Shown here piece by piece: positions 15,731 through 63,812 of a stretch of 64,000 nt of DNA. The translations under genes and the position numbers were made by a program. The notes under the pieces were generated by a model. It saw only the letters and a list, made by a program, of their open reading frames with translations. It was not told the DNA's origin and made no database searches. How positions within the stretch are numbered: position 1 is the stretch's first letter; each line of letters opens with the position of its first letter. Source of the stretch: Chondrosia reniformis (lineage: Eukaryota > Porifera > Demospongiae > Chondrillida > Chondrillidae); NCBI GenBank assembly GCA_947172415.1, contig OX359202.1, positions 5,132,899-5,196,898 on the forward strand. Reading direction: 5' to 3'.

Positions 15731-17565
15731 CATTAGAGTGCTGTAACTCTATCAAATGGAGAGATATGAAGCTGAAACATTGTGTACGTATTCACAGAGA
15801 TGTATGAAAGGCTTCCAATGAGTTTTGCAAATTTTAATATCTACTCAAATTTGCCTTATCTCTCACCATACATTAACTTTGTATAGCAGTAATTTAAAGT
15901 ACATTTATGGCTCTAACTCTTCGAAATAAACAGATATGTGTTTGAAACTCTAGCTCAGTATTCACAGAGATGTATGAAAGGTTTCCAATGAGTTTTGCAA
16001 ATTTTGATATCAGCTGAAATTTGTCCAATCTCTCACCATACGTACGTACATTAACTTTGTATAGCAGTAATTTAAAGTACATTAAGTGCTGTAACTCTTC
16101 AAAATGGAGAGATCTGGATCTAAAACTCTGTGCCAGTATTCACAGAGATGTATGAAAGGTTTCCAATGAGTTTTGAAAATTTTCAAATCAGAGCTCAAAT
16201 TTACCCTATCTCTCACCATACATTAACTTTGTATAGCAGTAATTTAAAGTACATTAAGTGCTGTAACTCTTCCATATGGAGAGATATGTATCTAAAACTC
16301 TAGCTCAGTATTCACAGAGATGTATGAAAGGTTTCCAATGAGTTTTGCAAATTTTGATATCAGCTCAAATTTACCCTATCTTTCACCATACATTAACTTT
16401 GTATAGCAGTAATTTAAAGTGCATTAAGTGCTGTAACTCTTCCATATGGAGAGATATGTATCTAAAACTCTAGCTCAGTATTCACAGAGATGTATGAAAG
16501 GTTTCCAATGAGTTTTGCAAATTTTGATATCAGCTCAAATTTACCCTATCTTTCACCATACATTAACTTGGTATAGCAGTAATTTAAAGTACATTTATGG
16601 CTCTAACTCTGCCAAATGAAGAGATATGGATCTGAAACTCTAGCTCAGTATTCACAGAGATGTATGAAAGGTTTCCAATGAGTTTTGAAAATTTTGATAT
16701 CTACTCAAATTTACCCTATCTCTCACCATACATTAACTTTGTATAGCAGTAATTTAAAGTACATTAAGTGCTGTAACTCTTCCATATGGAGAGATATGTA
16801 TCTAAAACTCTAGCTCAGTATTCACAGAGATGTATGAAAGGTTTCCAATGAGTTTTGTAAACTTTAATATCAGCTCAAATTTACCCTATCTCTCACCATA
16901 CATTAACTTTGTATAGCAGTAATTTAAAGTGCATTAAGTGCTGTAACTCTTCCATATGGAGAGATATGTATCTAAAACTCTAGCTCAGTATTCACAGAGA
17001 TGTATGAAAGGTTTCCAATGAGTTTTGCAAATTTTGTTATAAGTTCAAATTTGCCCCATCTCTCACCATACATTAACTTGGTATAGCAGTAATTTATAGT
17101 ACATTTATGGCTCTAACTCTGCCAAATGAAGAGATATGGATCTGAAACTCTAGCTCAGTATTCACAGAGATGTATGAAAGGTTTCCAATGAGTTTTGAAA
17201 ATTTTGATATCAGCTCAAATTTACCCTATCTCTCACCATACATTAACTTTGTATAGCAGTAATTTAAAGTACATTTATGGCTCTAACTCTTCGAAATAAA
17301 CAGATATGTGTTTGAAACTCTAGCTCAGTATTCACAGAGATGTATGAAAGGTTTCCAATGAGTTTTGCAAATTTTGATATCAGCTGAAATTTGTCCAATC
17401 TCTCACCATACGTACGTACATTAACTTTGTATAGCAGTAATTTAAAGTACATTAAGTGCTGTAACTCTTCAAAATGGAGAGATCTGGATCTAAAACTCTG
17501 TGCCAGTATTCACAGAGATGTATGAAAGGTTTCCAATGAGTTTTGAAAATTTTCAAATCAGAGCT
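15730..17565 (+). repeat. Diverged satellite subfamily, about 170-bp unit
   Basis: About eleven monomers related to the 169-bp unit share CTCACCATACATTAACTTTG and end in AGAGATGTATGAAAGGTTTC. A block of more than 250 bp at 15894-16160 is repeated essentially unchanged at 17264-17530, 1370 bp or eight monomers later, including the TACGTACGTA insertion. This again indicates higher-order duplication. The array is cut in mid-monomer by the retroelement at about 17566. Confidence 0.92.
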
Positions 17566-17995
17566 CAAATTTCACTCCCTCAAGACTGGCCACTCAATTG
17601 CTTGGGACAAGGCCAAGATTACAGACAGGGAAACCCACTGGCAAAGGAGAAGGGTCAAAGAAGCCATCAGGATCCAGAGGAGTCAGGTGAGAATGAATTT
17701 AGATCAAGGCATTTTGTTACATCAAGCCTGGAGACGATTTAATATTCATACTTCCTGTTTTTCTCATTCTGCTGAGGGTCACATGACAGGAAGTGGGAAT
17801 GGCGGGAAAAATCCTCTATAAATAGAGGCAATTCTTCCACTCAACCATCAGTCACTGAGGAAGACCCCCAGGGTCGAAACGTTTGACCAAGAATTGAAAA
17901 AACCAACTGCGTTTTTAAACGCTCAAAAGTCGAAGGATGTACCATCCCAAAGATAAGTTCGACGCAGTTATAAGGAATCCTTATTCTATTACATT
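17566..17995 (+). mobile_element. Penelope-like element, 3' end
   Basis: From about 17570 a frame without a start codon encodes HSIAWDKAKITDRETHWQRR, then RVKEAI and later LNLD/MNLDQG, running out near 17740. This pattern (H-S-I-x-W-D, then R-x-x-K-E-A-I, then L-N-x-D-x-G) is the family's usual C-terminal end of the Penelope-like polyprotein, downstream of the GIY-YIG nuclease. About 110 bp after the frame lies a hammerhead-ribozyme-like core, which Penelope-like elements are known to carry. The end GGAATCCTTATTCTATTA recurs at about 53050. The element is strongly 5'-truncated and sits where the satellite changes orientation. Confidence 0.75.
17851..17887 (+). ncRNA. Hammerhead ribozyme-like motif
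   Basis: The parts appear in type I order. GTCA (17851-17854) is one strand of stem I. The core CTGAGGA (17855-17861) fits C-U-G-A-N-G-A. After one extra A, stem II is GACCC/GGGTC with loop CCA. GAAA follows (17876-17879). Stem III is just AC/GT without a loop, then T17 at 17883 as the predicted cleavage base, and TGAC (17884-17887) pairs fully with GTCA. Such a minimal stem III is expected to work only as a dimer, as proposed for Penelope-like and related elements. The extra A before stem II is a deviation. Activity is not shown. Confidence 0.65.
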
Positions 17996-18515
17996 AAAAT
18001 CTGTCATACAAAGTTAATGTATGGTGAGAGATAGGGCAAATATGAACAAAAATTGAAACTTCTAAAACTCTTTGGAAATGTTTCATACGGGTCTGTGAAT
18101 GCTGACATCAAGTATTAGAATGACACCTTGCTGTTTGTTGGGGTTACGACCCTTAATGTACATTAAAATCTGCCATACAAAGTTAATGCACGTATGGTGA
18201 GAGATAGGGAAATTTCAAGTTTCATCAAAATTTCAAAAGCTCATTGGACATGCTCTATAGATGTCTGTGAATGCTTACAAAAAAGTTTAGCTTCATTTTT
18301 CTCCTTTTGATAGAGTGACAGCCCTCAATGAACATTAAATTCTGGTATAACAAGTTAATGTATGGTGAGAGATAGGGCAAATTTTAAGTTTCTTCAAAAT
18401 TTCAAAAACCCCATGGGCCATGTTCTATAGATGTCTGTGAATGCTTACAAAAAGGTTTAGCTTCATATCTCTCCATTTGATAGAGTTACAGAACTACAGT
18501 TAATGTACTCTTTTG
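17995..18515 (-). repeat. Satellite array, minus orientation, short block
   Basis: About three monomers lie in the same orientation as 950-3548. The first resembles that array; the next two (GGGCAAATTTTAAGTTTC type) form a further diverged subfamily that reappears after 19600. A CACGTA insertion sits in one monomer at 18187. Confidence 0.88.
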
Positions 18516-21627: not shown

Positions 21628-24600
21628 ATGGCAGAAGAGCAGGCTAGTTTGCTACATAATGTTTCAATACAAGAACCGTTGCAGAATGCGGATCAAAAAG
21701 TTACGCTTCCCCGTAAAGCAAAACGACGAGGGTTGGTAGGAATTGTTTGTCGTAATTAACTGTACTGCAGAAGTAGATTGGTACATCTGAATATATAATT
21801 TGTACAATGCTTAGAGGTATTGCCTTCTTTGCAGGTTAGATTTCAACTTTCTGAAGTACTTTCTGAGGCTTCTGAGGCTCATGTTTCCCAAGCTAAAGTC
21901 TTGTACTCTCTTTTGGTTCATCTTCCTGTTAATAGCCCGAGGAGCAGGTAACGTAGCGGACTGGGATACTGTCTATTGTGCTCTACTGCCCTTTCATTGT
22001 TTACACAAATAATTGAATTATTTTTGTTAAGATGCTACTGTATGTATTGATGTGTTGGTGTACTTTTGGCATCTAATACTTATGGAGCAGCTCATATTGA
22101 GGTTATAAATCCAGTGTCAGAGATTCAGTCACATAAGTATATAAGGTCTATATACTGTATTATCTCTAATATAAGCCTGGGGCTTGTATTTCTCAAACCC
22201 CTCTGAACCTGGGCTTTTATTGGAGACTGGGTTTGTATAAGAGACTGGGCTTTTATTTTTTCAACCCTTCAATTCATATTGGTAAATCAACTTTGTTGGG
22301 ACAATTTCCACGTAAACTATGTATAGAGAGCAGCATGTTTGATAAGTATGAATACCAAAAGTACTTTAGTAGTGTGTCAGTGGGCTTATATTGGGGACTG
22401 GGTTTCTATTTTTTCGATAACTCCTAAAAGTGGGCTTCTATTGGAGACGGGCTTGTATTAGAGACGGGCTTGTATTAGAGACGGGCTTGTATTAGAGACG
22501 GGCTTGTATTAGAGACCTGGGCTTATATAGAGATAATATGGTATGCCCAGTTTTGTGACCCTACTACAGTGGTATTATGACTTAACACTTCTATCTTATA
22601 TGGTATTAGAGGAGTACAATGTGTACAACACTGGTCTGGTTCCAAGCATTTTTTATGAGGTGATTGACGGAAGAGATGCAGAAGGTTTTAAGAGTGTACT
22701 ATGGCAGGCGGCCATTGTGATACTGTCAGTAGTGCTTGTGAGTGAGGATCAAATTAACCACTCTCTCCTTAGTTTTCTACCTTTAGGATCAGACAAAACA
22801 ATTGACCTGGGGTTCTTACTGATTGAATCCAGTTTGATTAGAATATAAAATTATATATTGTTCCTCAATACTGTGTAAACAGGTTTACTGGAGATTATAT
22901 TTTGTGGTATATGGGATAATTTGATAGCCATTTTGAAGGAATTCCTTATGTGTAATTTTATGTCTACAGCAAATTGTTGTTTAATACAGGGAGCCTCATG
23001 GTATGTGTTGTAAACATTGTGTGTAAACATAGTGTGTTTATTTTTGAGTGTTTGTAGGTGTAGTTTGTAGGTGTAGTTTGTAGGTGTAGTTTGCAGTGTG
23101 TCCTCCTTCTACTTTATTGGATGAAGATTTCATTGCCATGTACATTTCTTGATTACTTACAGTGTAAAAGTGTCAGGGAGTGGGTAGCAGGTCTGCTGTA
23201 TGTACGCTGGCGTGGTCTTATAACACAGGGTATTCATAAACTATACTTCAAGGATAAACTCTACTATCAACTCAGTCTTTTGGAAGAAACAATAGACAAT
23301 CCGTAAGAAATTTAGGCTCAACTACATTTCTAATTTTATTTACACATACATATATTGAGTGGTTAGCAGACCTTTCCAGTGACCCAACAGATGTTTAGTA
23401 TGGTTTTATTTCTATTGCTAGTAGTACATATTATTTTTTAGCACTAAAGATTATAAAAATAGCAGCTGTAGCGACATATTTTAATATCCACAACTCAATA
23501 AGTGAGATATAAGTGGATACCAAAGCAGTAACCATAACTCTGTAAAATTATCTCTATGGAATTTTAAATTAGATACTCAGTGTGTTGCTCTTCCCTCTCT
23601 GCCACATTAAGGGATCAGCGAATCACTCAAGACGTGGACAGATTTTGTCTCGAGTTGCAGAACACAGTCCCACAACTTGTGATTGCTCCATTTGTGATTG
23701 TGTACTATTCTTACAAGACATTTGATCTGTGAGTACAAGAGACTCTGTCTGCCGATTGTATGTATTGCTAAAGAAGAGAGACAGAAAGGAGAGATGATGA
23801 TTGTATTCCTTGACCTCAAACATATGCTACACATGAGATGGTATTCCTACGTACACTTGTAAACGTTACAGTAAATCCTGTAACCAGCCGGCTATAACTC
23901 TTAGATTTCCAGAAACACTGGTCTTCAAGGATGTCATTATTTGTAGAACTTTATATTCCAATAGTATGGGTATCTATGGACCAGCAAGTATCTATGCCTT
24001 TGCCATCATTGGAGCTACTTTAAACAAGTTTCTGATGGGGCCTGTGGTAAGGGCAGTTGTTAAACAGGAAGAGAGAGAAGGTCACTTCAGGTACAGTACA
24101 TATGAATAATAATCGATGTGATAATCAAACCACAAGTAATAATCAATCAAACATCATAAAGAGGGAAAAACACGAAAGAAGCAATTGCTGGGAATCGAAC
24201 CCAGGACAGCTGGTTATGACCACCAGTTGCTCTGCCACTGAGCTACAACTGCCACAGCAATGCCCCCCTCATGCTCTCCCTCTTAAGCTAACTACAACTA
24301 ATAATTGGTTTACATTCTTAATCAGTGGTGATTCTCTTCATCAGTACAAGCTGATAGTGGGAGTGGCCATCTTAACCAATGGGTCGCTGGCCACCATCTA
24401 CTACCACTACTTGCGATATTCAAAGAAATCTCATTAAACCATGATTACTACATTTCTGTGTTAATAACAGATGTGCCCTACATACCTATATGTTTACCGC
24501 AACTAATCTGGACACCTTAGTACATTTGCATACGTACATGGTTACTTTGATCTAAACTTTTCACTCATTAAGTTATTATACCCATCTAATTCACTCAATT

Positions 24601-27600
24601 AATCAGGAAATTTGCATAAAATGGATGCAATGCAAGGTCTTGCTATATATACAGTATTTTCTTCCACTGATGTCATGCAGTGTCATTTATCCACTGTACT
24701 GTATAGGTTTCATCATATGCAAGTTCGAGTCAACTCAGAACCAATTGCCTTGTACAGGTTTGTGTTTTTAGCTTTTATCACCTTACCCCCTCCCTCACTG
24801 CACCATCCCCCTCCCTCACTGCACCATCCCCCCTCCCTCACTGCACCATCCCCCCTCCCTCACTGCACCATCCCCCCTCCCTCACTGCACCATCCTTCCT
24901 CCCTCACTGCACCATCCCTCCTCCCTCACTGCACCATCCCTCCTCCCTCACTGCACCATCCCTCCTCCCTCACTGCACCATCCCCCCTCCCTCACTGCAC
25001 CATCCCCTCCCTCACTGCACCATCCCCCTCCCCCACTGCACCATCCCTCCTCCCTCACTGCACCATCCCCCCTCCCTCACTGCACCATCCCCCCTCCCTC
25101 ACTGCACCATCCCTCCTCCCTCACTGCACCATCCCCCTCCCCCACTGCACCATCCCCCTCCCCCACTGCACCATCCCCCCTCCCTCACTGCACCATCCCC
25201 CCTCCCTCACTGCACCATCCCTCCTCCCTCACTGCACCATCCCCCCTCCCTCACTGCACCATCCCTCCTCCCTCACTGCACCATCCCCCTCCCTCACTGC
25301 ACCATCCCCCCTCCCTCACTGCACCATCCCCCCTCCCTCACTGCACCATCCCCCCTCCCTCACTGCACCATCCCCCCTCCCCCACTGCACCATCCCCCTC
25401 CCCCACTGCACCATCCCCCCTCCCTCACTGCACCATCCCCCCTCCCTCACTGCACCATCCCCCTCCCCCACTGCACCATCCCTCCTCCCTCACTGCACCA
25501 TCCCCCCTCCCTCACTGCACCATCCCCCCTCCCTCACTGCACCATCCCCCTCCCCCACTGCACCATCCCCCTCCCCCACTGCACCATCCCCCTCCCCCAC
25601 TGCACCATCCCCCCTCCCCCACTGCACCATCCCCCTCCCCCACTGCACCATCCCCCCTCCCCCACTGCACCATCCCTCCTCCCCCACTGCACCATCCCTC
25701 CTCCCTCACTGCACCATCCCTCCTCCCTCACTGCACCATCCCCCTCCCTCACTGCACCATCCCCCTCCCTCACTGCACCATCCCCCCTCCCTCACTGCAC
25801 CATCCCCCCTCCCTCACTGCACCATCCCCCCTCCCTCACTGCACCATCCCCCCTCCCTCACTGCACCATCCCCCCTCCCCCACTGCACCATCCCCCTCCC
25901 TCACTGCACCATCCTCCTCCCTCACTGCACCATCCCCCTCCCTCACTGCACCATCCCCCTCCCTCACTGCACCACCTCCTCCCTCACTGCACCACCCTGA
26001 GGCCTCTCTCTGCACCATCCCCCTCCCCCACTGCACCATCCCCCCTCCCTCACTGCACCATCCCCCCTCCCTCACTGCACCATCCCCCCTCCCTCACTGC
26101 ACCATCCCCCCTCCCTCACTGCACCATCCCCCCTCTCTCACTGCACCACCCCTCCTCCCTCACTGCACAATCTCCCTCCCTCACTGCACCATCCCTCCTC
26201 CCTCACTGCACCATCCCTCCTCCCCCACTGCACCATCCCTCCTCCCTCACTGCACCACCCCCCTCTCTCACTGCACCATCCTCCTCCCTCACTGCACCAT
26301 CCCCTCCTCCCCCACTGCACCATCCCTCCTCCCTCACTGCACCACCCTGAGGCCTCTTCTCCTCTTTCTATTGTGTAGAGGTGGTAAAGTAGAATCAGAG
26401 AATGCAAAAAGGAGGCTTGGGGTAAGGCCATTGGTTAGCATTGCTGATAGCATTGCTACCACTTTATACACATTAATTCTCAAGCTTTGTAAAACAGGTG
26501 AAGCATTGTAACAACATGGTTTGTGTTTCTTTCCTCAGGAGCTCCTTAGCACACAGTATAGAGTTTTGAATTGGAATCTACCTTTGAACAGTAAGGTTAT
26601 ATTAGCACATTAATATAAGAAATGAATCTAATCAGTAAGTACGTACCATACTAAAATGTTAAAATCACTTATACGTAAATTGTGTCAGTGAGAGAATTAA
26701 TGGATTGAGGCAGCTACAACTATCTTTATTTCCCATAATAGTGATAGTCAATTTCTTAAAAAGTTTAAATAGATAATTTGATAGCTTTGCTTAATTAAAA
26801 AACTGTTGTACAGTAAGACTACTGCAATTATTATATTTAGTGTTTGCTGCTGCTTGTACTGTGTAACTGTTTGTGGTTTATATTTTTGTAGCTTCTGTCA
26901 ACTTTTTTGACTATTTTGGTGCCATATTGAGCTACATACTAATCAGTATTCCAGTGTTCTATCTCGGATGGTATGACCATCTGTCAGCTGTTGAGCTGAG
27001 CTCGCTAGTCAGTAAGGTAGGTTCATCTGTACAGGGGAAACTACCTAATCCGGTTACTTAGCAACACAGGAGATCTAATTTGTCAACAGCTGCTTTAGTT
27101 GGGTAACTAGATTCTTAGGGTTTAAAGTTACATGATATTGTAGAGGTTCATTGTCGAGTCCGACAATTGTAATAAATGATCTGGAGATGGAGCAAATTAC
27201 GCAACAGAAGTATACATGAAAAATCTAATATACCATTTTCCTACATGCTATATGCCTATTCTGTAAAAAGAGCCTATAGGGGAACTAAACCTAAAGAGAG
27301 CTTTAGATGAAGATACAGGAGTCTTTTCTTCCTTCTTTTCCCTTCTTTCATCTTCTTCTCCACTGGGTCAGACAGCCGTTTCTGGGAATTCCACCCTTCA
27401 TCAGTGATCCTGGGAGTCTTTGTCTTTTTCTTTATCTTGATCTTCTGTGAATCCTTGGCTCATGCATAATATACCAAGGACTCATGAAAGATTAAGAAGA
27501 CAAAATTCCCCCTTGTTATTCTACTTCAGCTCACTAATCCTTGTTATTCTACTTCAGCTCACTAATCCTTGTTATTCTACTTCAGCTCACTAATCCTTGT

Positions 27601-30600
27601 TATTCTACTTCAGCTCACTAATCCTTGTTATTCTCACTAATCCTTGTTATTCTACTGTAGAGTTCCTTCATGTCAATCTACTTGATCAATAACTTCACAA
27701 AGCTTATTGATCTGTCAACTAATATGTCAGATCTCATTGGATATACTCACAGGTTAGCTGGACAGGATCAATTATCTAAAATGTTCTTTTAAAGAAAAGG
27801 GGTTTTCCCACTCCAGGATAGGTGAATTACTGCTAGCTTTAACAAAGCTGGACAAAGATGAGTTCTCTAAAAGGAAAAGAGAAGAGAGTGAATCAGAAAG
27901 TTGTGATGGAGACCAAGACGACAGAGAAAATTCATTGTATGGTTCAAATACAAGTTAAAATCTCCAAATATACTTGTGTACATGATGCCCAATGTAAACA
28001 ACTCTAACTTTCACAGTTTCATTCTTATCATGGCATTTGCAATCACTACACAAAATAGGAAGTTGTTAGCATCTTGATGTCCATTGCACACTGTGATGCT
28101 AAGCATCAACAGATGTACTGTCACCACTAAACCACACTGTGTTGTCATTAACTGTCATGTACTTATTTCCAGCCCTGAGGAAGTAGATAATTCAGATCAG
28201 AATGACCAAGTGGCATTGGAGACTATCAACCTGTCATTGTCGCCTCCTCAATGGAAACATCCTATATTGAAAGGTACAACGTGCCTGTATAGAAGGATGG
28301 GGTGTGCTTGTTATTGATATTGTGGTTTAAAGTCTATGTAATTCTGTTCATCATATGTAGATATATCATTCACTTGGAAGAAAGGTTGTAACATCCTGAT
28401 TACGGGTGAGAATGGAACTGGAAAGAGTTCTCTTATTCGTGTATTAGCTGACCTATGGCAGCCATTAGAAGGTAGGCTGTAATACTTTGAATATTGAATA
28501 TATATGTAAGTCTTCCATTTATTTATGAATAGCTACAGTGTAACTTCAAATATCTTCCAAAATACAAATACACATTATATTGAATTGAAACTTAATGATT
28601 TCATTCTGATATTTGTAATGTGTTACAAATGCAGTGTAAGCCAACTCTTAACTTACAGACTTACCATTCGTGAACATAGGCTCATACAAGTGGCATCAGG
28701 AGTATGGTCCAAATGGGATAATGGTCCTACCACAGAAGGTCTATCTCACAAGTGGCTCGTTGGCAGACCAGGTAGGCCTAGCTAGTATAGCACTTTAATG
28801 AGAGCCAATTGTATAGAGCAGCTGCTGGTATTGTGTGAATAGCTAGCTGGGTGGCCTGTATACTCACCTCATATTAGTTTCCAGGGGTCTCTGATGAAAA
28901 AACGTGAGCTAATAACTACAGTACCTGGCCAAGCTAGTGAACATTTGGTTTGCAAAATAAGTATTATTTATAGCTGTAGTTATATATTAGCTCTCATCTT
29001 TTCATCACACACATATATACATTTATTTATGTAAAAGTAGCATCACAGATGATTCATGCATGCGGAGATACATTTGTGCTTTGAGGTCAAACTTAATCAG
29101 ATATAGTCATTTATATACAAAATATGTCAATGTTTAGATTATGTAATTCCTTCTCCTTGTAGATTGCCTTTCCCAGACAAGCTAAGGACAGTGACTACAC
29201 TTGTGATAACACTTACCAAGGTACTGTTAACCTTGTTAGTCTTTACTTACTTTGTGTAACCTGAGTGTTTTGATTTCAATGTTCAACGCAGTATTGAAGC
29301 AATGTATTTTACTTTCACACATACGTACGTACGTATATACAAACTTGTTTTTCTTTTGACTTTATGTAGTTAGAATGGATAGAACTAGTGAAGCACTGCA
29401 GATGACACATTTGGTGAGAATGCCCAAAACAGTAATATACACATGCACTGCACCACATGCATGTACAGACCTTCATATATATACTTTACATAAGATATCT
29501 AAAATCTATCCAAAGGTTTGACCTAAACCTCTATCCAAAGGCTTGACCTAAACCTCTATCCATAGGCTTGACCTAAACCTCTATCCAAAGGCTTGACCTA
29601 AACCTCAACCCAAAGGCTTGACCTAAACCTCTATCCAAAGGCTTGACCTAAACCTCTATCCAAAGGCTTGACCTAAACCTCTATCCAAAGGCTTGACCTA
29701 AACCTCTATCCAAAGGCTTGACCTAAACCTCAAACCAAAGGCTTGACCTAAACCTCAACCCAAAGGCTTGACCTAAACCTCAACCCAAAGGCTTGACCTA
29801 AACCTCAACCCAAAGGCTTGACCTAACCCTCTATCCAAAGGCTTGACCTAAACCTCAAACCAAAGGCTTGACCTAACCCTCTTTCCAAAGGCTTGACCTA
29901 AACCTCAACCCAAAGGCTTAAATTTTAGAGTATACTGTTTATTTTGAATCTCTTGTGTGTAGCTCTATTTGAGGGATCGTCTTGGTGGTAACACTGTTCC
30001 ACTTTCCCTAAACCAAAGCTGGTAAGTCAGATACCTCATGTGGTAATTTGTAAATAATTTCATCTAAATAAATTTATTTATGTGTTGCGGTGCAGCCAAC
30101 TTAAAACTGTATGTATATTTTGTATCATAGGATTAGCTATGGATGCTTCTATATTTATACGCTTCTTCAACTAAATTATGATGGATATTTGACTTATAAG
30201 AGTAGGATTGAAGCCTATAGCTGATATGTTTAACTCAGCAGGTTATCATAACTGCTATTTCCCCTTGTGTACCCAATATTAATTGTGGTTTAACTATCAC
30301 TTACGTAGCTTATTTAGTGTTCTTATCCATTTACATGATCTAGGAGTGACTACATATCTCCTGGAGAAGCTCAGGGCTTGTCCTTTGCCAGACTGTTTTT
30401 TCATAAACCAGATTTTGCAAGTATGTCAGTCGCACACATACGTACATATGTTTACAGTAGCTCCTGTATATATGCACTATATACAGATCATCTAAATACT
30501 TATTCCATATTTCAGATTGACTGTGTTAAATTTAGTTGCCATTTTTAATGATAAACAAGACAATTTGTGGTAATAAAAATGGCAACCCTTGTTCACCTGG

Positions 30601-43938: not shown

Positions 43939-55102
<11,164 letters not shown>

Positions 55103-61300: not shown

Positions 61301-63812
61301 TAAAAGTGGTCACACAATTTAAAATCTTGTGCAATGATTAATTTTACCTAAGTTTGTAGAGTCCCGCCAATCATTTTCTCAATCAGTTGATTCTTTATTT
61401 TTTCTTAAAAACAGTTATCTAAAGTTGTTTTAATTTATGCATTTCAAAATGTAGAAAGTTAAAGCCTTGGGCGGTGTTATTGTTCAGAATATTGAAGACT
61501 GTACTCATCTTGTGGCTAAAAAGGTAATAATACTCTCCAAACCTGTTAATGTCCTATTTGCTGATCATTGGTGTACAGCATATCTTTGTCTTTAGATATC
61601 TAGATCTGTGAAGTTCTTATGTGGACTGTGTCAGTGTAAATATATTCTCTCCAATAAGTGGATCACCCATGCTAAAGAGTTTGGAAGTTAGCTCGAGTTA
61701 TTATAATGTATAGTTATAATGTATAGTTATAATGTGTAGTTATAATGTATAGTTATAATGTGAAGTTATAATGTATAGTTATAATGTGTAGTTATAATGT
61801 GAAGTTATAATGTATAGTTATAATGTATAGTTATAATGTATAGTTATAATGTATAGTTATAATGTATAGTTATAATGTATAGTTATAATGTATGTATAGT
61901 TATAATGTATAGTTATAATGTGTAGTTATAATGTGTAGTTATAATGTGAATGTATAGTTATAATGTATAGTTATAATGTGTAGCTATACCCCACCCATGT
62001 CTCCTGAGGAGCACAAATGAGTAATGGGTAGAACCAAGGGGAAACCAGAATTTTCCCCCATTGCCACTCAAAGCCATTGACTATATACATATATATACTT
62101 GTATCTTAGTTTATATCATATACATACGTACGTACGTATATTCTAAAGTGTTATTGTTTAGAGGAAGAAGACTATATACTAGAGGATAGGAATGGAGAAG
62201 AGACATACGGAATTAAGTTAAGAGAGAGCCTTAAGAAAGCAAACAGGAGGAAATTACTAGATGTACGTATACAAGGGAATTATGTAGGGATTAAGGTTTA
62301 ACCTACATTAAAATAGTGGCAGCTGAAACATTATCGAAGGACCACACACATCTGTTTTGCCCTCCTTGGACTTCTGTATACACTTGTGGTGGACATAAGA
62401 ATTCTGTTGATTATTCGTACTGTAATTCATCCTAACTAGCTTTTGCATGGATTTGTGCACTTAATTCCTTATTCAAATACATACTGTGTATGCTAGTATT
62501 CTCTTCTAATATACCAATCAAAACTTAAGTACGTACATGTACATACATGTATGTTCCTTTTTGCAAAATACGTACATATACGTACATATGTATTTATATG
62601 AAATGAATTATACTTATGTGTATATGAATGATGCTAGAGGACTTGTAAAGTATAAATTATACGTGTGTATGCAGGGATTGTGTATTTATGCCACGCAGTC
62701 AGTAGTTCCAGAATATTCCATCTTAAAGGGAATAGTTCACTGTGCAGGAGGAAAGGTTTGTTCCTTACAAGCTTTTTAAAATGTAATCTTAAGACTGACA
62801 GTTCAGTACTTCTGTAAATATCCTCAGTGTTTCTACCTCACAAGAGTGCTGTATGTATGTATGTAGTTACTGAAGGTAACACTGATCATTCTCTCCCTCT
62901 TTCCTTTGACAGCTGTTGAACGAGATAGAACTCTTAAAGGAGTATAGTTCAGTTCTGAAAGGAGAGGTAGGTATAGGAAAAGTCTCAAAGTATATATCCA
63001 ACTATATTTTGCAATCTTTGAGATGGTTCATATTTGGTCTTTGAGCATCCAGAGATGCAGCTTGTCTTCTAGAGAGTTGGACATTTCAACCCTGGGGGGT
63101 TTTCTTCAGCGACTGATGGTGACTATTGGAGTTTGCTACTTTTATAGAGAATTTCCCTACCATTTCACATATTTACCAAGTTATGTGTTGAGACTAAGAT
63201 TGTATTATTACAACACATCAAATGATACAAGTATGCTTGTTTTTAACTGGAGATTCTGTTTATTTATGTATTAGAGTAAAATGTCACAGATGAACCAGCC
63301 TCTGGTAGTCATTTGCAGAGATGTAGATTTTGAGGATAACAAAACTGAAATGGAAATGTTTCTAAAGGCTAGAGTTTGTAAGAAACACATACAGTATCAT
63401 ATTTACCATTTAATAAAGAACACTTACAACTGATAAACTATATACATACGTACGTAGGTCTCTTTTATTCCACAGCCTGAAAGTTATAATTGGCAGGTTT
63501 TAAACTGCACACCAAGCTGTATGTATGTATTAGCAGATAATTGTAGTAGTATAATACATATATGTTTATTTAGAATAAAATATCCAGTTCTATAATAATT
63601 ACATATACTGTAATTTAAGTCTGTAAAATACGTAAATATGCACTCATTATACTTTATCTATATACATACTTTATTTATTCTTCTACCTCACAGCACTCTA
63701 CACACCAGAGCTAGTGTTTACTGGTATTCTAAAACAGGAGCTGCTGTTTGGTCAATGCAGAATCATTGTTCCAGGCCATTTTTATCAAAATGCCATGACA
63801 TCATCAAATTGA
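55325..63812 (+). CDS. PAXIP1: PTIP/PAXIP1-like BRCT-repeat protein
   Basis: Eighteen exons join in phase to 907 residues: 55325-55393, 55629-55816, 56132-56204, 57235-57348, 57555-58478, 58862-58960, 59297-59440, 59710-59831, 60196-60278, 60700-60798, 61072-61262, 61455-61523, 61596-61686, 62162-62262, 62675-62755, 62913-62966, 63275-63377, 63694-63812. N-terminal BRCT pair: IVKSDWVVLSHKCAT, LWAMIVFYGG, VTHLIT, VITPEWVLDSI, YHPKHL. A repetitive middle (about residues 285-380) is followed by further BRCT units (LLKGMYFFIAGYQ, CTHLVVN, TTHLICQR) and the C-terminal pair (VMLTGF, CTHLVAKK, KWITHAKEF, ESLKKANRRK, GIVHCAGGK, PELVFTGILKQ). PTIP works in the DNA-damage response and with KLL/MLL H3K4 methyltransferase complexes in the nucleus. 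Human PTIP (1069 aa) has a glutamine-rich middle; here it is replaced by H-P-P-A-S repeats. The alternative start is the next codon, also ATG. Confidence 0.87.
57070..57192 (+). mobile_element. Short element with inverted ends and a hammerhead-like core
   Basis: TTTGAGATGGTTCATCTT at the left is matched by AAGATGAACCATCTCAAA at the right. Inside, CTGAAGA (57104-57110), a weak stem and GAAATGTCC (57124-57132) mimic the core at 17855. It lies in the third intron of the PTIP-like gene, just upstream of exon 4. Confidence 0.55.
57966..58250 (+). repeat. Coding 18-bp minisatellite in PTIP-like exon 5
   Basis: About 16 units around CCTCCCGCCAGCCACCA encode (H/Q)-P-P-A-S-H repeats. All units are multiples of three and keep the frame. 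Variant residues (ACHHPP, SYHPSA, ANHQPP) show partial divergence. Confidence 0.93.
60294..60345. repeat. 12-bp tandem repeat after exon 9
   Basis: Four to five units of CACATGGTTGT lie 16 bp after the exon 9 donor of the PTIP-like gene. Confidence 0.8.
61690..61985. repeat. AT-rich 12-bp minisatellite
   Basis: About 24 units of GTATAGTTATAAT with variants GTGTAG and GTGAAG start directly after the donor of exon 13 in the PTIP-like gene. Confidence 0.93.
62995..63195 (-). mobile_element. Decayed Penelope-type terminal fragment, minus strand
   Basis: Read on the minus strand: ACCATCAGTCGCTGAAGA, then a stem of A/C-G/T pairs, then GAAATGTCCAAC. This parallels ACCATCAGTCACTGAGGA and GAAACGTTTGACC at 17846-17888. 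A predicted stem I (GTCG with CAAC, one mismatch) is kept. The outer part shares GAACCATCTCAAA with the element at 57070. It lies in the intron before exon 17 of the PTIP-like gene. Confidence 0.55.

What the first reader, a model, noticed from the sequence alone, without database searches (positions are those of the whole stretch)
17846..17892. Hammerhead ribozyme-like fold at the end of a Penelope-like element
All conserved parts are in type I order: CTGAGGA, a 5-bp stem II, GAAA, a loop-less AC/GT stem III, a predicted cleavage base T at 17883, and a 4-bp stem I (GTCA/TGAC) that pairs perfectly across the core. It lies about 110 bp downstream of a frame that looks like the C-terminus of a Penelope-like polyprotein, where such ribozymes are known to occur. 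The one extra A before stem II and the 2-bp stem III predict weak or dimer-only activity.
Basis: partly seen in the sequence, partly recalled or inferred. Interest (0 to 1): 0.72.

Follow-up and report, generated by a model that had tools for sequence, protein, structure and literature searches.

The report
Penelope retrotransposon hammerhead at transcript start
The motif is a real hammerhead-ribozyme fold carried by a mobile Penelope-like retroelement with hundreds of relatives in this (probably animal) genome; it belongs to a known class, but it appears to sit at the very start of the element's own RNA, and new copies look as if they were made from RNA that had not been cut there.

Summary
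A hammerhead fold with C3 at 17855 and predicted cut after T17883 is present as described: 1 in the window, 0 in 300 random windows. It lies in a 5'-truncated Penelope-like element (17571-17991). That stretch has 50 listed matches in the own genome, itself included, and one copy has an 825-aa RT + GIY-YIG frame. The core pattern occurs 934 times genome-wide, 4 times reversed. Over 42 distinct motifs stems I and II covary: 83.6% of cells paired, shuffle maximum 67.3%; 77 double-change cells, maximum 35. A covariance model trained on other families finds 17847-17891 at E 2.4e-9; Rfam reports no hammerhead there. The 'extra A' is a family trait, not a defect. New here: a TATA box overlaps the ORF stop; 15 of 113 mapped 5' ends of copies lie 1-8 nt upstream of C3, 0 of 113 within 2 nt of the cut. 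The ribozyme therefore seems to form the transcript's 5' end, and integrated copies seem to derive from uncleaved RNA. Known class (minimal type I, diminished stem III); cleavage was not testable here.

The parts
17571..17991 (+). 5'-truncated Penelope-like element copy (C-terminal 80-odd codons, pLTR, start of the next ORF, long 'tail' end)
   Evidence: blastn to the L009 unit 98.8% over 422 columns; 50 listed matches of 17580-17990 in the own genome, itself included
17571..17821 (+). C-terminal end of the PLE ORF with stop TAA 17819-17821
   Evidence: tblastn 94% identity to residues 741-825 of the L009 ORF, alignment 17564-17818, E 1.4e-47
17817..17824 (+). TATAAATA box overlapping the ORF stop codon (promoter role inferred)
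   Evidence: sequence; 18 of 32 other motifs have a TATA-like word at -48..-26 against 4.6% background
17847..17854 (+). predicted transcription start region; pile-up of 5' ends of copies (unit 1697-1704)
   Evidence: 15 of 113 mapped 5' ends in these 8 nt, Poisson P about 1e-10 from upstream density
17851..17887 (+). minimal type I hammerhead fold; predicted cleavage after T17883
   Evidence: model R1 hit 17847-17891, 43.5 bits, E 2.4e-9; covariation in sister families
17862..17862 (+). extra base between A9 and stem II, present in all 32 motifs (of 42) with a stem II of 2 bp or more
17937..17990 (+). start of the next unit's ORF (MYHPKDKFDAVIRNPYSI)
   Evidence: tblastn 100% to residues 1-18
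17955..17991 (+). 37-bp optional 'tail' between the two alternative 3' ends of copies (inferred reverse-transcription starts)
   Evidence: 3' ends of 123 arms: 60 at unit 1803-1809, 60 at 1839-1846 (5 of these run on into a next unit), 3 elsewhere; 41 of 43 inverted pairs have one short and one long end

Best explanation
It is the pLTR-borne minimal type I hammerhead ribozyme of an EN-containing Penelope-like retrotransposon. Shown: the fold is conserved by compensatory change across motif families of this genome; it lies 33 nt after the ORF stop and its cut 54 nt before the next ORF's ATG; 5' ends of copies pile up at its 5' edge and not at its cut site; 3' ends fall on two sites in the next ORF. 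Inferred: the element's promoter (TATA 17817-17824) starts the RNA a few nt before stem I, so the ribozyme is the 5'-terminal structure of the monomer RNA and recurs at every unit boundary of tandem read-through RNA. Two motifs together (or one plus the element's protein) complete a 4-bp palindromic ACGU stem III and cleave after T17883, splitting tandem RNA or removing the leader. Cleavage is gated: the RNAs used as templates for integration are mostly uncleaved, and reverse transcription starts near 17955 or 17991 on the two cut DNA strands and runs to the RNA 5' end, giving head-to-head inverted insertions.
For: Exact motif 138 places vs 0 reversed; core 934 vs 4; covariation over 42 distinct motifs, 83.6% paired vs shuffle maximum 67.3%, double-change cells 77 vs maximum 35; A2: 94.6% paired vs 72.4% shuffled, score 0.733 vs 0.278, 0 of 500 shuffles, slid versions 0.226 or less; held-out family model E 2.4e-9; RT and GIY-YIG; TATA 18 of 32 vs 4.6% background; 5' ends 15 of 113 at -8..-1, 0 of 113 at the cut; the 16 letters after the cut preceded by GTT in 111 of 118 places; inverted pairs 41 of 43 with one short and one long end. 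Literature: the PAc PLE hammerhead cleaves only with its protein, and mutants still insert (PMC11167929, passages and second part of section 3).
Against: No cleavage assay. No Rfam hammerhead at 17750-17980 even at E 10. The hammerhead stems have probability of only about 0.16-0.18 in the 47-nt monomer and 0.12-0.16 in the 141-nt RNA, and a 7-bp hairpin competes. In 35 young copies the ribozyme segment varies like its flanks (0.0062 against 0.0067, 0.0110, 0.0063 and 0.0114 per site), so they show no clear selection. In one search two of five measures did not stand out: further pair types 12 vs 13.0 shuffled (459 of 500 as high), pairs with double change 7 vs 5.5 (17 of 500). 9 of 42 motifs belong to a family with a longer insert and mostly broken stem II. 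14 of 32 motifs lack the TATA word, and the 32 include close relatives (L174/L198, L187/L190, L193/L194). Two copies do begin within about 2 nt of the cut (L156, L159). The loci were mostly gathered by the motif, so arms beginning downstream of C3 are under-sampled.
Confidence: 0.82

Rival explanations
1. The conserved RNA fold is no longer catalytic; it is a hammerhead-derived structure kept as a protein-binding or reverse-transcription signal at the RNA 5' end.
For: Templates of new copies look uncleaved; weak monomer fold; hammerhead mutants of PAc still insert in vitro (PMC11167929).
Against: The core letters needed for catalysis (CTGANGA, GAAA) go with stems that change, though the search pattern itself fixed these core letters; PAc's hammerhead does cleave with protein.
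Confidence: 0.15
2. [quoted passage not shown]
For: Position between units of tandem arrays; two copies start within about 2 nt of the cut.
Against: 0 of 113 mapped 5' ends within 2 nt of the cut against 15 at the upstream edge (under-sampled downstream); 111 of 118 downstream segments keep the GTT upstream of the cut.
Confidence: 0.06
3. Coincidental or DNA-level palindrome in a repeat, no RNA role.
For: Stem pairing could also serve a DNA hairpin; inverted junctions near the site make palindromes.
Against: 0 of 300 random windows; chance matches of the core in viral contigs: 0 of 69 have a stem II of 5 bp or more, 3 of 69 have 4; covariation outside the fixed core.
Confidence: 0.03

Closest known systems
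Minimal type I hammerhead ribozymes of Penelope-like elements (Cervera and de la Pena 2014; Luense, Weinberg and Breaker 2017; both not held, seen only as cited in other papers)
   Same: Host element, position in the pLTR, hammerhead core (letters of the core recalled), short stems, hardly any stem III, no loop-loop contact, expected dimer activity (passages of PMC6155905, PMC7761336, PMC6466107).
   Different: Whether the extra base before stem II and the TATA/start-site position are described there could not be checked.
PAc (Poseidon of Anolis carolinensis) hammerhead, PMC11167929 (passages and second part of section 3)
   Same: EN-containing PLE, tandem units, hammerhead at the pLTR-ORF junction, two reverse-transcription starts near the ORF start, both DNA strands cut and extended, cleavage only with protein.
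   Different: There the ORF begins at stem II and the cut lies 26 bp inside it; here the ATG is 54 nt after the cut. 3' ends lie about 19 and 56 nt into the ORF here; RT starts in a stem loop 111-118 bp into it there.
Pen2a_Av and relatives of Adineta vaga, PMC3846280 (passages)
   Same: pLTRs, inverted pLTR, optional 31-bp tail on one of the inverted pLTRs, TATA plus Inr-like TCACT in the pLTR.
   Different: The word hammerhead does not occur in that paper; here the TATA-start-hammerhead order and the end pile-ups are counted.
Retrozymes with canonical hammerheads (PMC7229834, PMC7761336, passages)
   Same: Hammerhead in a retroelement, often tandem.
   Different: Non-coding, small circular RNAs, canonical hammerheads with tertiary contacts; here a 2.6-kb coding unit and a minimal motif.

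Membership tests
Hammerhead ribozyme (type I topology) | C3 U4 G5 A6 N7 G8 A9 ... G12 A13 A14 with A15.1-U16.1 and H17 (definition recalled) | tested here: met
   All letters present; in the sister motifs fixed by construction of the search
Hammerhead ribozyme (type I topology) | Three helices around the core, open ends on stem I | tested here: inconclusive
   Stems I and II supported by covariation; stem III is 2 bp without a loop, so only in a dimer can it form a 4-bp helix
Hammerhead ribozyme (type I topology) | Stem II follows A9 directly (recalled) | tested here: not met
   One extra base (A 17862) in the window and in all 32 of 42 motifs with stem II of 2 bp or more
Hammerhead ribozyme (type I topology) | Rfam covariance model match | tested here: not met
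   No hammerhead model at 17750-17980 up to E 10; sub-threshold Hammerhead_3 matches at two of ten sister loci, L188 23.9 and L179 20.2 bits, gathering 48.5
Hammerhead ribozyme (type I topology) | Self-cleavage after H17 | not testable with these tools
   needs an RNA assay
PLE-type minimal hammerhead (diminished stem III) | Located in the pLTR of a Penelope-like element, in tandem at unit boundaries | tested here: met
   L009 and L011: motif on either side of the coding unit, 2594 and 2593 bp apart (the L011 frame is broken)
PLE-type minimal hammerhead (diminished stem III) | Stem III reduced to a few palindromic pairs | tested here: met
   ACGT without loop
Penelope-like element, EN-containing | RT plus C-terminal GIY-YIG endonuclease in one ORF | tested here: met
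   RVT_1 E 4.1e-10; GIY-YIG E 0.0002, 22.0 bits against cut-off 22.6
Penelope-like element, EN-containing | pLTRs, tandem or inverted partial copies, optional tail | tested here: met
Retrozyme | Non-coding short tandem units with canonical hammerhead and tertiary contacts | tested here: not met
   2.6-kb coding unit, minimal motif; tertiary contacts themselves not tested

The most novel reading that the evidence does not exclude
In this genome the PLE hammerhead is a start-site element. Promoter, RNA 5' end, ribozyme, ORF start and both reverse-transcription starts are packed into about 175 bp, and the ribozyme with its obligatory extra base forms a distinct, gated subclass whose task is not to make the 5' end of the transposing RNA but to act on RNAs not used for transposition (for example uncapping or splitting tandem transcripts), with integration proceeding from RNA that escaped cleavage.
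Probability: 0.35. Interest if true: 0.65.

Novelty: new member of a known kind. Interest (0 to 1): 0.48.

Why it matters
[quoted passage not shown] A genome with 934 core motifs, several families and young copies lets one read the fate of the ribozyme from the ends of the copies. The ends speak against the guess that cleavage makes the template's 5' end. They also tie the ribozyme to the start of transcription, which a 5'-end RNA assay can test directly.

Tried and rejected
Viral contigs as a source of outside PLE hammerheads: 69 matches of the core pattern, 0 of 69 with stem II of 5 bp or more, no tblastn match of the PLE protein at E 0.001; kept only as a chance background. The PLE protein found nothing in viral contigs by short-peptide patterns. 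Young copies for selection on the ribozyme: uninformative. Rfam as a test: negative. Search for inverted partners in the 40 small loci: found for 10 of 42 motifs, too few and too loose to add to the end count; 5 of the 7 values of -23 to -38 lie in the insert-bearing family. Solved structures: three distant RT matches. The pattern ending in CGAAACGTC did not complete. For one search I chose 20 of the 42 motifs plus the window by hand, after seeing the stems, leaving out near-duplicates, poor stems (for example L180, L161, L186) and the insert family (L166 misaligned); one search repeats the count on 41 distinct motifs plus the window. In one search, 1 of the 43 pairs (C2:6081000) was joined by a looser second rule, and 30 arms stayed without partner (15 short, 15 long), some cut by the ends of the fetched stretches.

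Full report
What was checked first. A scan for the complete fold (core letters, stem II of 4 bp or more, a 2-bp loop-less stem III, H17, stem I of 4 bp or more, with or without one extra base) finds 1 place in the window and 0 in 300 first-order random windows of the same length. Rfam 15 reports no hammerhead at its thresholds in the window and none at 17750-17980 up to E 10.

The element. In the window's own genome (117.4 Mb, 15 contigs, unnamed) the exact motif occurs 63 + 75 times and the reversed pattern 0 times. The stretch 17580-17990 has 50 listed matches including itself; those over nearly the whole stretch are 96-99% identical (only 40 of 1683 first-look candidates were scored, so a lower bound). 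L009 holds a unit of 2594 bp from motif to motif with an open frame of 831 codons from stop to stop. Its 825-aa protein matches RVT_1 (E 4.1e-10) and GIY-YIG (E 0.0002, 22.0 bits against a cut-off of 22.6). The window copy is a 5'-truncated piece, 17571-17991: the C-terminal part of that ORF (alignment to residues 741-825), the stop TAA at 17819-17821, the ribozyme, and the first 18 codons of the next ORF from ATG 17937. The motif is thus 33 nt after the stop, not about 110.

The fold is kept by compensatory change. The core CTGANGA...CGAAACGTT with 6-26 free bases occurs 489 + 445 times in the genome; read backwards, 3 + 1. I fetched 40 short stretches around places chosen from the 100 listed, mostly for differing stem II; they hold 42 motifs. 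Stem II is 3 bp or longer in 31 of 42 and stem I 4 bp or longer in 31 of 42. All 32 motifs with a stem II of 2 bp or more have exactly one extra base before it (29 A, 2 G, 1 T by the listing). Nine motifs belong to a family with a longer insert, where only L166 shows a clean hairpin (GGCC/GGCC, seen by eye); one (L170) has a broken closing pair. Counting 42 distinct rows (41 of these plus the window), 83.6% of cells pair against at most 67.3% in 500 shuffles, and 77 cells carry double changes against at most 35. On a hand-chosen 21-row alignment, 94.6% of cells pair against 72.4% shuffled and the covariation score is 0.733 against 0.278, 0 of 500 reaching either; slid partners score 0.226 or less. 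The number of further pair types does not stand out (12 against 13.0), and the number of pairs with double changes does so only mildly (7 of 8 against 5.5, 17 of 500). The core letters were fixed by the search, so only the stems count as evidence. Shuffles do not remove relatedness. A covariance model built from 17 rows without the window's GACCC(cca)GGGTC family finds 17847-17891 with 43.5 bits, E 2.4e-9; part of that score comes from the fixed core. The next matches are 63072-63117 (-) at 0.29 and 52972-53023 (+) at 1.1.

Where copies end. I merged the larger loci (L001-L086) to 68 stretches and mapped 123 arms against the natural L009 unit. 3' ends: 60 of 123 at unit 1803-1809, 60 at 1839-1846 (5 of these are internal and run on into a next unit), 3 elsewhere; that is about 19 and 56 nt into the next ORF, 37 nt apart. 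Many insertions are head-to-head inverted pairs: of 43 pairs, 41 have one short and one long end and 2, both in one complex locus, have two short ends (P 2e-10 against even odds, taking pairs as independent); 30 arms had no partner. Optional tails on one of the inverted pLTRs are known (PMC3846280, passages), and two adjacent RT starts with extension of both DNA strands were shown for PAc (PMC11167929). Of 113 arms with a mapped 5' end, 15 end 1 to 8 nt upstream of C3; from the density upstream 1.5 are expected, P about 1e-10. None of the 113 ends within 2 nt of the cut. These loci were found mostly through the ribozyme, so arms that start after it are seen only through a partner. A check without that bias: the 16 letters just after the cut occur 118 times, and 111 of these are preceded by GTT (three letters only, not the whole ribozyme). 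Of the 7 others, 5 are in the listed part. Four of these were read: L156 and L159 begin at the cut within about 2 nt, L157 is a local duplication, L158 a rearranged or changed ribozyme. The fifth (C5:3844788) lies in an arm whose 5' end is upstream of the ribozyme. The last 2 were not seen. So at most 4 of 118 can begin at the cut.

Promoter. TATAAATA (17817-17824) overlaps the ORF stop, 30-33 nt before 17847-17850, where most of the piled-up 5' ends lie. Among the 32 motifs of the fetched stretches without a detected inverted partner, 18 have a TATA-like word 26-48 nt upstream of C3, against 4.6% for random places in the window; three comparison bins gave 1, 2 and 5 of 32. The 32 include three pairs of close relatives. 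Motifs without it may be insertions that begin at the start site and so left the TATA behind (inference). The rotifer PLE Pen2a also has TATA and an Inr-like TCACT in its pLTR (PMC3846280). Library searches for Penelope with hammerhead and transcription start site or TATA listed two papers each, by their titles and abstracts on plant retrozymes and circular RNAs or unrelated; the two founding papers on PLE hammerheads are not held, so I do not claim the link is unpublished.

How it most likely works. The RNA starts a few nt before stem I (inferred). Alone the motif folds poorly: stem probabilities of about 0.16-0.18 in the 47-nt piece and 0.12-0.16 in the 141-nt RNA, with a competing 7-bp hairpin over the cut site. 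ACGT is its own complement, so two motifs can share a 4-bp stem III, the double-hammerhead mode described for PLEs (PMC6466107, PMC7761336, passages); PAc's hammerhead cleaves only with its protein. Copies in the genome keep the ribozyme, and those that are not truncated run to the presumed RNA start, so the integrated RNAs appear to have been uncleaved, in line with PAc mutants that insert normally. The young copies themselves cannot show selection: 0.0062 differences per site in the ribozyme; 0.0067, 0.0110, 0.0063 and 0.0114 in the four flanking segments, 35 copies.

Standing. Member of the known class of minimal PLE hammerheads by place, core and covarying stems. Not met against the textbook hammerhead: stem II directly after A9, and an Rfam match. 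Not testable here: cleavage.

Noticed in passing
window 63072-63117 (-), with TATAAAA upstream and ATGAACCATCTCAAAGAT downstream: A second, older PLE-type hammerhead motif of a sister family; its stem II AACCC/GGGTT differs from GACCC/GGGTC by a change on both sides (model E only 0.29).
   Followed up: partly
window 57104 (+) and 52972-53023 (+): Two decayed PLE-type motifs, the first between inverted copies of an ORF-start-like ATGAACCATCTCAAA.
   Followed up: partly
window 27377-27404 (-), and two places in the C2:4809796-4820257 stretch: Another repeat with CTGATGA, a hairpin AGGG/CCCT without extra base, and GAAACGG, but no T where U16.1 should be; seen in three places, nature unknown.
   Followed up: no
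window 17000-17570 and 18000-18500: A repeat of roughly 175 bp runs forward on the left and inverted on the right of the PLE piece (by eye); no target duplication was recognised by eye.
   Followed up: no
merged loci: PLE insertions are head-to-head pairs with one short and one long 3' end in 41 of 43 pairs, as if each DNA strand used a different reverse-transcription start.
   Followed up: yes
L016 5176-6795 (-): Another reverse-transcriptase-like frame with YRYIDD (by eye) beside PLE copies, not the same family.
   Followed up: no
window 24603-26511 (+): Minisatellite open in all three forward frames (PPSLHH/LTAPS/LPHCTI); GC skew -0.48 over 24001-28000.
   Followed up: no
window 48599-51853 (-): Two adjacent long frames in a GC-rich stretch that look like a LINE-type retrotransposon (from recall, no search made).
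   Followed up: no
L164, L166, L167, L171, L172, L195, L196: A motif family with an insert before stem II; one search gives stem I of 5 bp in all nine motifs, stem II mostly broken.
   Followed up: partly
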